Shown one piece after another: positions 1-1,625 of a DNA stretch of 58,147 nt. The translations under genes were made by a program, and so were the position numbers. The stretch is from the NCBI GenBank assembly GCA_902546085.1, contig CACCIO010000006.1, forward strand, positions 1 to 58,147, in the 5' to 3' direction. How positions within the stretch are numbered: the first letter of the stretch is position 1; each line of letters starts with the position of its first letter. Origin of the DNA: an uncultured Pelagibacteraceae bacterium. Its GTDB lineage: Bacteria; Pseudomonadota; Alphaproteobacteria; Pelagibacterales; Pelagibacteraceae. Below the pieces are notes generated by a model. That model had not been told where the DNA came from and made no database searches. It worked only from the letters and a program-made list of their open reading frames with translations.

Positions 1-622
1 TTTCTTGCTCATATTTCAGCTTCCTAGCTGCCTCTCTTAATCTTTGTTCTTCCTCAAGTCTATTTTTCCTTTCAATTTCTTTTAATCTTATTTTTTCTTT
101 TCTTTCTTTTTCTTTTTCATCTCTTCTCTTTTGAGCTTCAATTTCTTTATTTTTTAATTGTTCCTCTTTAATTTTTATATTTTCTTCTCTAATTCTTTGT
201 CTCTCTAACATTTTTAGCCTTAAATCTTCTTCTTTAAGCTTTCTGGCTTCCTCTCTAAGTTTTCTAGATTCTTCGTCTTTAATTTTTTTCTGTTCTATTT
301 TAATTCTTTGAGCTTCTACTTTTTGTCTTTTTTCTTCATTCTTTTTTTTCTGCTTTTCATTTTCAATGATTAATTTTTTTTGAAAAAGAAGTTTCTTTCT
401 TTCTTCTTTAAGTTCGTCTTGTTTAGCTTTTTTCGCTAATTTTTTTTCTATAATTAATGCTCTTTTCCTCTCTTTCTCTAATTGTTTTTGTAATGCTAAA
501 TCTTTTTTAACTTTGTTTTTTTTAAAATCTTCTAAAATTGAGGAAAACTTTTTTTTTGTTTTATCGATTGGATCAAATAAACTTTTTTTAATATTTTTAT
601 TAATGTCTTTTATTGAAACCAT
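1..622 (-). CDS. Highly charged coiled-coil protein (partial, C-terminus outside window)
   Basis: An open frame runs from an ATG at 622 leftward off the window edge, giving about 207 codons without a stop. After a short N-terminal stretch beginning MVSIKDINKNIKK, the protein is almost entirely Lys, Glu, Arg, Gln and Leu in runs such as EERKKLLFQKKL and ERKEKIRLKEIERK, which is typical of one long helix or coiled coil. I see no signal peptide or membrane segment in the visible part, so it is probably cytoplasmic. I do not recognise a family; low-complexity charge makes similarity searches unreliable. The C-terminal part, which could hold a real domain, is missing. That it is a gene is fairly sure; its function is unknown. 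Confidence 0.75.
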   Translation of the reverse strand, partial: MVSIKDINKNIKKSLFDPIDKTKKKFSSILEDFKKNKVKKDLALQKQLEKERKRALIIEKKLAKKAKQDELKEERKKLLFQKKLIIENEKQKKKNEEKRQKVEAQRIKIEQKKIKDEESRKLREEARKLKEEDLRLKMLERQRIREENIKIKEEQLKNKEIEAQKRRDEKEKERKEKIRLKEIERKNRLEEEQRLREAARKLKYEQE

Positions 623-699
623 TTTAAAAAGTATCAATTAGAATTATAACACTAAATATTATGTGTGGCTAAATTGAGTTTTTTTTTCAGATTAAATGC

Positions 700-836
700 A
701 ACTTAAGATTGTCTGATTTTAAGTTAGTTAATAAAAGACATTTTCAACTAATAAGTGTTCTTAGATGTTTAAAGAATCACTTAGTATGAATTCGTGAGGT
801 GATGGAGGGAGACTGAAATCACCTCTTTTTTTTTGC
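700..836 (+). ncRNA. Candidate structured small RNA in the 217-base gap
   Basis: The gap between the divergent coiled-coil gene and the end of the TauE-like gene holds consecutive predicted hairpins on the + strand. A short one pairs TTAGTT (724-729) with AACTAA (746-751). A 10-bp stem with one bulge pairs 753-762 with 772-782 around loop AGATGTTTA. The last stem pairs GAGGTGAT (796-803) with ATCACCTC (818-825) and is followed by nine T. The 14-base loop of the last stem carries GGAGGGAG (804-811). No open frame fits. The 5' end is a guess. I do not match it to a named RNA; SRP RNA, tmRNA and 6S RNA hallmarks are absent. Confidence 0.4.
796..834 (+). terminator. Intrinsic terminator
   Basis: An 8-bp GC-containing stem (796-803 with 818-825) is followed directly by T826-T834. 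The T-run exists only on the + strand, yet the nearest genes on both sides read leftward. It therefore must end a + strand transcript that starts within the gap, which supports a small RNA here. Confidence 0.65.
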
Positions 837-839
837 TTG

Positions 840-1625
840 TTATAATTTTAAGTATTCGTAAAAAAATTTAATCGAAACCGCTAAAAGAAAAATTCCAAAA
901 AACTTACTAATTTTATTCTTATCAATACTGTGTACTGTTTTAGCTCCTATCCGAGCCATGAAAGTTGTAATTGGTATAAATATTAAAAATGCTGGTATAT
1001 TTATAAAACCAATACTTAGTGGAAGACTAGAATTTAAAAAACTTCCTGAAAGAAGAAATCCTATTGCTCCAAATACAGCAATTAAAAAACCTATAGCTGC
1101 TGCGCTCCCTATAGCTTTATTTATTGAATAACCAAAAAACTTAAGGATAGGTACATTCATTACAGCTCCTCCTATACCCATAGGAGCAGATATAAATCCA
1201 ACAAGAAAACCAAGAATTACTTTTAAATGTAATTTCATTTTAACAATTATGTTTTGCTCCTTTTCTTTTATTAAAAGTAAGTAAATTCCTAAAAATAAGA
1301 TCATTATAGAAAAAAATAAAACCAAAGATTTTGTTTTTAGAGAAGATGCAAAAACAGTTCCAATAATCACTCCTAGTACAACAAAAAGACCGTAATTCTT
1401 TACAATATCAAAATCAACTGCTTTAAATTTATGATGTGTTAAAACTGAAACTGTAGAGGTTGGTATTATAATTGCAAAAGAAGTTCCAACAGCAAGATGC
1501 ATTACATATTGAGGATCAATTTCTAAAGAACCAAAAATAAAATATAAAAAAGGAACAGTTATCAACCCTCCACCTATACCAAATAATCCAGCCACAAAAC
1601 CTACTGGAATAGCTGTTAAAGCCAT
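840..1625 (-). CDS. TauE/SafE family permease (sulfite exporter-like)
   Basis: This is a 261-residue polytopic membrane protein of the TauE/SafE (DUF81) family. The family signature appears near the N-terminus as GLFGIGGGLITVPFL and again in the second half as APMGIGGAVMNVPIL, the usual internal duplication. About seven to eight hydrophobic segments are visible. Family members export sulfite, sulfoacetate or other small organic anions. A sulfite-export role would fit the sulfonate genes at 30-47 kb, but those are 30 kb away, so this is only inference. The frame stays open upstream of the ATG at 1625 to a stop at 1680-1682, adding hydrophobic residues (YIYIILL), so a non-ATG start slightly upstream is possible. 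It lies just downstream of dusA on the same strand. Confidence 0.85.
   Translation of the reverse strand: MALTAIPVGFVAGLFGIGGGLITVPFLYFIFGSLEIDPQYVMHLAVGTSFAIIIPTSTVSVLTHHKFKAVDFDIVKNYGLFVVLGVIIGTVFASSLKTKSLVLFFSIMILFLGIYLLLIKEKEQNIIVKMKLHLKVILGFLVGFISAPMGIGGAVMNVPILKFFGYSINKAIGSAAAIGFLIAVFGAIGFLLSGSFLNSSLPLSIGFINIPAFLIFIPITTFMARIGAKTVHSIDKNKISKFFGIFLLAVSIKFFYEYLKL

What the first reader, a model, noticed from the sequence alone, without database searches (positions are those of the whole stretch)
700..836. Candidate small RNA with a purine-rich GGAGGGAG loop
The 217-base gap is long for this window, has no ORF, and contains consecutive stems ending in a terminator on a strand where no gene could use it. 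The final loop exposes GGAGGGAG, able to pair with pyrimidine-rich sites and resembling a ribosome-binding site. A regulator or protein-sequestering RNA is possible.
Basis: partly seen in the sequence, partly recalled or inferred. Interest (0 to 1): 0.52.

Follow-up and report, generated by a model that had tools for sequence, protein, structure and literature searches.

The report
Ocean bacterial RNA sharing phage hairpin
A roughly 92-letter non-coding RNA gene, kept by many SAR11 ocean bacteria, ends in an unusual hairpin that viruses of the same bacteria also carry next to their own genes, which points to a shared but still unidentified RNA-handling factor.

Summary
The 217-base gap lies in a SAR11 (Pelagibacteraceae) genome. 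Its right half (about 743-834, + strand) is a conserved RNA gene: 20 of 61 genomes by DNA search, own included, 219 of 399 genus genomes by a strict hairpin pattern, 185 of 297 order genomes by covariance model. Only the final hairpin (796-825) has covariation support. Its cap NNAGGGAGACURA fits a GAGA tetraloop on a G-C/G.U helix. The first stem (700-725) is outside the conserved part; the middle stem has no covariation support. The purine loop is probably a structural cap, not an exposed seed: its complement gave only 2 stray sites in 13 genomes, and CsrA, Hfq and ProQ models matched none of nine SAR11 genomes. The same hairpin sits in at least 120 viral contigs, mostly just after a stop codon and without a U run, and in cultured pelagiphages. 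Best reading: an independent sRNA whose 3' hairpin is a loop-specific end/stability handle that phages share. No expression data were available; factor and targets are unknown.

The parts
623..839 (.). intergenic gap holding the RNA gene
730..735 (+). AATAAA, weakly conserved -10-like box 8-13 bases ahead of TTCAAC; supposed start signal of the RNA
   Evidence: 125 distinct host sequences; A .74, T .64, A .74, A .81 at -43 to -40 relative to GAATC; that it is a promoter is inference
743..834 (+). conserved small RNA gene, about 92 nt
743..759 (+). conserved 5' block, consensus TTCAAYTAWTAASGTGTT-like
773..783 (+). conserved block AGAATCANNTA; GAATC at frequency 1.00 in the 129 rows (in one search, 1 of 138 loci was set aside because the fetched stretch begins after this block)
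796..825 (+). 3' hairpin, stem GAGGUGAU/AUCACCUC with covarying pairs
804..817 (+). near-invariant cap GGAGGGAGACUGAA; GAGA tetraloop at 809-812 on pairs 808-813 and 807-814
   Evidence: compensatory swap in phage relatives
826..834 (+). U run; with the hairpin an intrinsic-terminator-like end, missing in about a third of relatives
700..725 (+).
840..1625 (-). TauE-like permease gene, convergent neighbour (name is my reading)
2..622 (-). K/E-rich coiled-coil-like gene, divergent neighbour, runs off the window

Best explanation
Window 743-834 (+) encodes a free-standing small non-coding RNA of Pelagibacteraceae. Its 3' hairpin sets and protects the RNA's 3' end: by intrinsic termination where a U run follows, and otherwise by factor-dependent ending or trimming back to the hairpin. 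The invariant GAGA-tetraloop cap is the recognition part, a loop-specific 3' handle bound by a host factor not yet named. The 5' blocks (UUCAAYUA..GUGUU and AGAAUCA) are the effector part, most likely pairing with targets or binding a second partner. Pelagiphages use the same handle, usually as an intergenic hairpin right after a stop codon (capsid gene, phrog_2402 gene before primase, Hsp20, amidase), where it would fix and stabilise the 3' end of the upstream message. Shown: conservation, covariation, loop constancy, sharing with phages. Inferred: transcription, 3'-end role, host factor, pairing by the 5' part. That it is a real RNA gene I hold at about 0.9; the confidence below is for the whole mechanism.
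For: Conservation: 20 of 61 genomes including the own one, 219 of 399, 185 of 297. Covariation: cells changed on both sides 43 against 13.5 in shuffles (0 of 500 reach it) and 57 against 21.4 (0 of 500); on the 20 loci found by DNA similarity, 16 against 9.1 (2 of 500). Inner pair: HTVC168P GG-GAGA-CU against its close relative Eistla GC-GAGA-GU. Not a cis leader: of 187 host loci (not deduplicated) the downstream gene is TauE-like (-) in 86, a MADKK.. gene (+) in 48, HIT-like (-) in 22, others in the rest. The cap AGGGAGACU is in 20 of 20 loci found by model while a U run of 5 or more is present in 115 of 172 distinct host loci. Model R2 hits HTVC031P, HTVC142P, HTVC109P, HTVC309P, Bylgja and HTVC027P at E 1.1e-4 or better. 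No Hfq, ProQ or CsrA match in 9 of 9 genomes, so a usual sRNA chaperone is unlikely to be the partner.
Against: No transcript data. Good genomes of the genus lack the RNA: no R1 match, and in seven of them no trace within 1.5 kb of TauE, so it is dispensable. At the same post-capsid site other pelagiphages carry unrelated loops, so this loop is not needed there. HTVC010P has none; HTVC023P (50 of 60.9 kb seen) and HTVC008M (50 of 147 kb seen) gave only weak hits with other loops (E 0.0068 to 0.8). The 5' blocks show no conserved structure and no recurrent complementary site. Two covariation measures do not discriminate: number of pairs with double changes (297, 301 and 278 of 500 shuffles reach it) and, in A3 and A1, further pair types (500 and 498 of 500). 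A3 and A4 rows were found with a pattern that fixes the cap and three G-C pairs and the purine/pyrimidine class of others. The CsrA and ProQ controls include no alphaproteobacterium that rings; the own genome is 80% complete.
Confidence: 0.5

Rival explanations
1. Plain intrinsic terminator or bidirectional terminator of the convergent genes; the loop is conserved only because it is very stable.
For: U run in 115 of 172 distinct host loci; GNRA-capped GC stem is stable; minus-strand fold of the gap also has z -2.57; other loops serve at the same phage site.
Against: 5' blocks TTCAA..GTGTT and GAATC are conserved with nearly fixed spacing, which a terminator does not need; the cap is kept in 20 of 20 loci found by DNA similarity and 20 of 20 found by model while the U run is lost in about a third; 112 of 120 viral copies lack a U run.
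Confidence: 0.2
2. Host decoy: the RNA copies a phage hairpin and soaks up a phage RNA-binding protein, as a defence.
For: Same cap in host RNA and pelagiphages; presence is patchy in the genus.
Against: The hairpin occurs in T7-like and HTVC023P-type phages with few genes in common (my reading), so a shared phage protein is less likely; the host RNA has its own conserved 5' part that phage copies lack: in the four best-scoring of 25 viral representatives the alignment shows no TTCAA..GTGTT and no GAATC, although 16 of the 27 model hits are reported full length, with 29-53 bits against 96 for the window. Defence genes were not searched for.
Confidence: 0.12
3. RNA processing site (for example for RNase III or an RNase E/J type enzyme) that separates upstream and downstream messages in phages and matures the host RNA.
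For: Intergenic, sense, between two sense genes in 99 of 120 viral contigs.
Against: Such sites are not known to need a 9-10-base constant cap (recalled); in most of 187 host loci the next gene is on the other strand, with 48 exceptions.
Confidence: 0.15
4. CsrB-like or anti-Shine-Dalgarno sponge using GGAGGGAG.
For: Sequence resemblance only.
Against: No CsrA match in 9 of 9 genomes; the GGA steps lie in a predicted tetraloop/internal loop; complement at 2 stray sites only.
Confidence: 0.03

Closest known systems
Hfq- or ProQ-bound trans-acting sRNAs with an intrinsic terminator hairpin (for example the RyhB type; recalled)
   Same: Short intergenic RNA gene, conserved 5' part, 3' GC hairpin with U run in most members
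   Different: No Hfq or ProQ match in the nine genomes tested; the cap is sequence-specific; the U run is often lost; the cap is shared with phages
Candidate RNAs of Ca. Pelagibacter ubique, Meyer et al. 2009 (PMC2704228; outline, passages, sections 5 part 1, 10 and 18 read; supplements not)
   Same: Same organism group; their rhtB element is also a hairpin with conserved loop, followed by a poly-U track in about half of examples
   Different: None of their named elements is listed beside a TauE or HIT gene. Whether the rhtB element has the same cap I could not test (alignment is in a supplement); their unannotated gap SAR11_1190/1191 (HIT, 29 BLAST hits) might hold this RNA, also untested
T7-like post-capsid terminator (T-phi) (recalled)
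   Same: Position between capsid and tail tubular A genes in HTVC031P and HTVC142P
   Different: No U run there; the same hairpin also sits before primase, after Hsp20 and after amidase genes in other phages
CsrB/RsmZ sponge RNAs
   Same: GGA-containing loop
   Different: One copy of the motif, constant neighbours, no CsrA match
AniS (Rfam RF02274)
   Same: Best Rfam match over 743-833
   Different: 18.7 bits against a cut-off of 50, E 0.65

Membership tests
independent small RNA gene | conserved beyond neighbours, not a leader of one gene | tested here: met
   187 loci, several different downstream genes on either strand
independent small RNA gene | own transcript | not testable with these tools
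   no expression data held; only a weak -10-like box
independent small RNA gene | base-pair covariation | tested here: met
   hairpin only, on three of five measures (four of five); 5' stem not
intrinsic terminator | GC hairpin followed by U run | tested here: inconclusive
   met in the window and 115 of 172 distinct host loci, not in 57 nor in 112 of 120 viral copies
Hfq-dependent sRNA | Hfq encoded by the genome | tested here: not met
   0 of 9 genomes; model rings in Caulobacter and 4 other controls of 14
ProQ-dependent sRNA | ProQ/FinO domain encoded by the genome | tested here: not met
   0 of 9 genomes; rings in 1 of 14 controls, E. coli
CsrB/RsmZ | CsrA encoded; several GGA hairpins | tested here: not met
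   0 of 9 genomes for CsrA, rings in 3 of 14 controls; a single motif
known Rfam family | match at the gathering score | tested here: not met
   window: only a tRNA elsewhere; 10 phage loci, 0 matches

The most novel reading that the evidence does not exclude
In SAR11, where no Hfq, ProQ or CsrA was found, this hairpin cap is the recognition handle of an undescribed RNA-binding factor that stabilises 3' ends. Pelagiphages of several groups have taken up the same handle for their own messages, and one HTVC023P-type group (L194 cluster) may end a phage-made small RNA with it, so that phage and host RNAs share or compete for one factor.
Probability: 0.3. Interest if true: 0.82.

Novelty: new variant of a known kind. 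Interest (0 to 1): 0.62.

Why it matters
[quoted passage not shown] A conserved RNA with a phage-shared 3' handle gives a concrete bait for finding how such cells manage small RNAs, and for how phages use the same machinery. It also gives a loop-defined test on existing infection RNA-seq of HTCC1062 (PMC12753301, passages seen, studied HTVC027P, which carries the hairpin).

Tried and rejected
Loop as antisense seed: CAGTCTCCCT at the RNA's own locus in 12 of 13 genomes and at 2 stray sites; G556 had none. 5' block complement AACACTTAATAGTTGAA with 2 mismatches in 8 genomes: own locus in 6, 12 other sites, against 21 sites for the reversed control. Phage seed complement GATGATAACAAGAAA: one-mismatch sites in 19 of 37 genomes; I did not check their flanking genes for a recurrent target. 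Class 2 loop in hosts: 1 of 61 genomes with up to 1 mismatch, next to a capsid-like end, so probably phage DNA. Hairpin-only model in 14 genomes of family f2: 0; in 10 genus genomes without the RNA: 2 weak hits that read as ordinary terminators. Middle stem: no covariation. One search aligned minus-strand loci in the wrong orientation; redone. In one search the stem finder failed (stem length 0) on some rows, so their tails start inside the stem and base-composition figures there are rough; one search gives an independent count, 88 of 136 with a T run of 5 or more (one of the 136 is the cyanobacterial chance hit). Rows dropped: L114 (cyanobacterium) before A3, the models; 3 loci whose fetched stretch is too short; 1 without GAATC for the same reason; exact duplicates. 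The pattern scans fix the cap by definition, so loop constancy is argued from loci found by DNA similarity, by model and from orthologous post-capsid sites. R2 was built partly from the HTVC031P-like cluster (L146), so its hit in HTVC031P is no independent test.

Full report
What was checked. The gap 623-839 holds no ORF of 30 aa or more that starts in it on the + strand. The neighbours are a K/E-rich gene (-) and a TauE-like gene (-) followed by a Dus-like gene (-) (names are my reading). Rfam gives only one tRNA in the window and nothing near its cut-off in the gap; the best match is AniS at 18.7 bits against 50. The last hairpin is better than shuffles, the whole gap is not.

Conservation. 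DNA 640-839 matches 20 of 61 genomes, all among the 37 of the own genus (own genome included) and none of the 24 of another family. Beyond the closest relative (94% over all 200 bases) the matches start at window 721-743 or later and end by 834. A strict hairpin pattern matches 219 of 399 genus genomes, 38 of 57 good ones, once each except one genome with two; I saw no hit of the reversed control in the rows. In GTDB contigs the scan stopped at 119 stretches; their titles are 118 Pelagibacterales/Pelagibacteraceae and one cyanobacterium. I estimate about 3 chance hits for that pattern in 257 billion bases (own calculation, uniform bases). A covariance model of 60 host sequences matches 185 of 297 genomes of the order (85% complete or more, plus the own genome) at E 0.1, 95 of 152 good ones. 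Strong matches are in the own genus and in a second genus (g12, 35 genomes in the list); g9 to g11 have one weak match each (E 1.9e-5 to 0.05), and two own-genus matches are weak (0.03, 0.07).

Anatomy. In 125 distinct host sequences (effective number 56) two blocks precede the hairpin: ATTCAAYTAWTAASGTGTT and AGAATCANNTA, with nearly constant spacing. A weak AATAAA box lies at -44 to -39, so the start is probably near TTCAAC (inference). GAATC to stem is 22-25 bases. The top mutual-information pairs include stem pairs 64-81, 59-86, 62-83 and 58-87 of the alignment. In A4 (28 host and viral hairpins) 96.8% of cells pair and 43 cells change on both sides, against 13.5 in shuffles; sliding the partner drops pairing to 29-53%. 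A3 (60 host rows) gives 57 against 21.4. These rows were found with a pattern that fixes three G-C pairs; the 20 loci found by DNA similarity give 95.0% paired, 16 double changes against 9.1 (2 of 500 shuffles) and score 0.243 against 0.185 (1 of 500). The number of pairs with double changes does not beat the shuffles in any of the three, and further pair types only in A4. Shuffles ignore relatedness, so these are not probabilities. The g12 stems differ again (GGGCAGU/GCUGCCY) under the same cap. AGGGAGACU is present in 20 of 20 loci and 20 of 20, the latter chosen by model. The consensus fold gives a GAGA tetraloop on G-C and G.U. The related phages HTVC168P and Eistla differ by G-C to C-G at that closing pair, a natural compensatory change. 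The middle stem of the window (743-790) has no such support, and 700-725 is outside the conserved part.

Ending. A T run of 5 or more follows in 88 of 136 loci and in 115 of 172 distinct loci of the later set. So intrinsic termination is common but not universal, while the cap stays.

Context. In 187 host loci the downstream neighbour is TauE-like (-) in 86, a short MADKK.. gene (+) in 48, a HIT-like gene (-) in 22 and others in the rest; upstream is mostly a ManB-like or a K-rich gene (names are my reading of the sequences). So it is not the leader of one gene. In seven good genomes of the genus without a model hit, no trace was found within 1.5 kb of TauE.

Phages. In 103 the hairpin follows a sense stop codon by 9-50 bases (median 23), in 99 it lies between two sense ORFs, and 112 lack a U run (mechanical ORFs). 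Named isolates: HTVC031P and HTVC142P between capsid and tail tubular A genes. Model R2 also hits HTVC109P, HTVC309P, Bylgja and HTVC027P (before primase) at E 1.1e-4 or better; HTVC010P none; HTVC023P (50 of 60.9 kb) and HTVC008M (50 of 147 kb) only weak hits with other loops. Of nine proteins scanned with PHROGs, upstream genes are phrog_2402 (unknown, three), Hsp20 and amidase, and two proteins match nothing. I read by eye the post-capsid gap of 20 pelagiphages, chosen from the list (33 Pelagibacter records): 8 have this cap or a near variant (031P, 142P, 168P, Eistla, 109P, 309P, Bylgja, 011P), 9 a second loop (A/U)AACAC(A/U)GACAA (131P, 200P, 119P, 019P, 201P, 304P, Gjalp, 041P, 011P) and 4 other loops (022P, 021P, 121P, 025P); 011P has two hairpins and counts twice. 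Roseobacter phage CRP-804 and cyanophage P-SCSP2 have an ordinary hairpin plus U run there. One cluster of 7 contigs (L194), whose terminase (from L244) is nearest HTVC023P (71%), has the hairpin with a U run and conserved TTTTCTTGTTATCATC ahead of it; in the representative L194 the nearest ORFs of 50 aa or more are 397 and 175 bases away and on the other strand. A promoter-like site precedes it in L194 (9 of 12) but not above the scan's threshold in L210, so a phage small RNA is only a possibility. The host model R1 gives 27 hits in 25 viral representatives and three phages at 28-53 bits (window 96); in the four best alignments shown the 5' blocks are missing.

Mechanism. Hfq, CsrA and ProQ models match 0 of 9 SAR11 genomes while controls ring. 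The loop complement is found at the RNA itself and at 2 stray sites. I therefore take the cap as a structural recognition handle at RNA 3' ends, with the 5' blocks as effector; steps shown and inferred are separated in Best explanation.

Literature. Searches. Read: PMC2704228 (outline, passages, sections 5 part 1, 10, 18), PMC2864571 (passages), PMC5069720 (passages, section 9), PMC12753301 (passages), PMC3840354 (passages). Nothing that I read describes this RNA or the shared hairpin. Supplements could not be opened, the rhtB element of PMC2704228 could not be compared base by base, and the marine small-RNA survey of Shi et al. 2009 (known to me from memory and from a citation in PMC3840354) was not seen, so earlier detection is possible.

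Noticed in passing
   Followed up: partly
nine SAR11 genomes: No match to the Pfam models of Hfq, CsrA or ProQ, although the Hfq model rings in Caulobacter.
   Followed up: partly
L194 cluster (L194, L199, L201, L207, L210, L233, L244): Possible phage-encoded small RNA ending in the same hairpin with a U run; conserved TTTTCTTGTTATCATC ahead of the stem.
   Followed up: partly
L026, L033, L044, L047 and others: In many hosts the U run of the hairpin runs directly into the ATG of a co-directional short gene (MADKK..), which leaves almost no room for a ribosome-binding site.
   Followed up: no
L397 (G001 C2 near 17776): Capsid-like phage sequence with the class 2 hairpin inside a SAR11 assembly: prophage, co-sorted or co-binned phage.
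   Followed up: no
G546, G550, G466, G532, G549 loci: A subclade has replaced the TTCAA block by TTTTGATTC..GAATCRAA, a stem around the otherwise invariant GAATC.
   Followed up: no
HTVC025P, HTVC121P post-capsid gaps: A third small loop type (GGCGGU.GAAAUAU..CGCC) at the same place.
   Followed up: no
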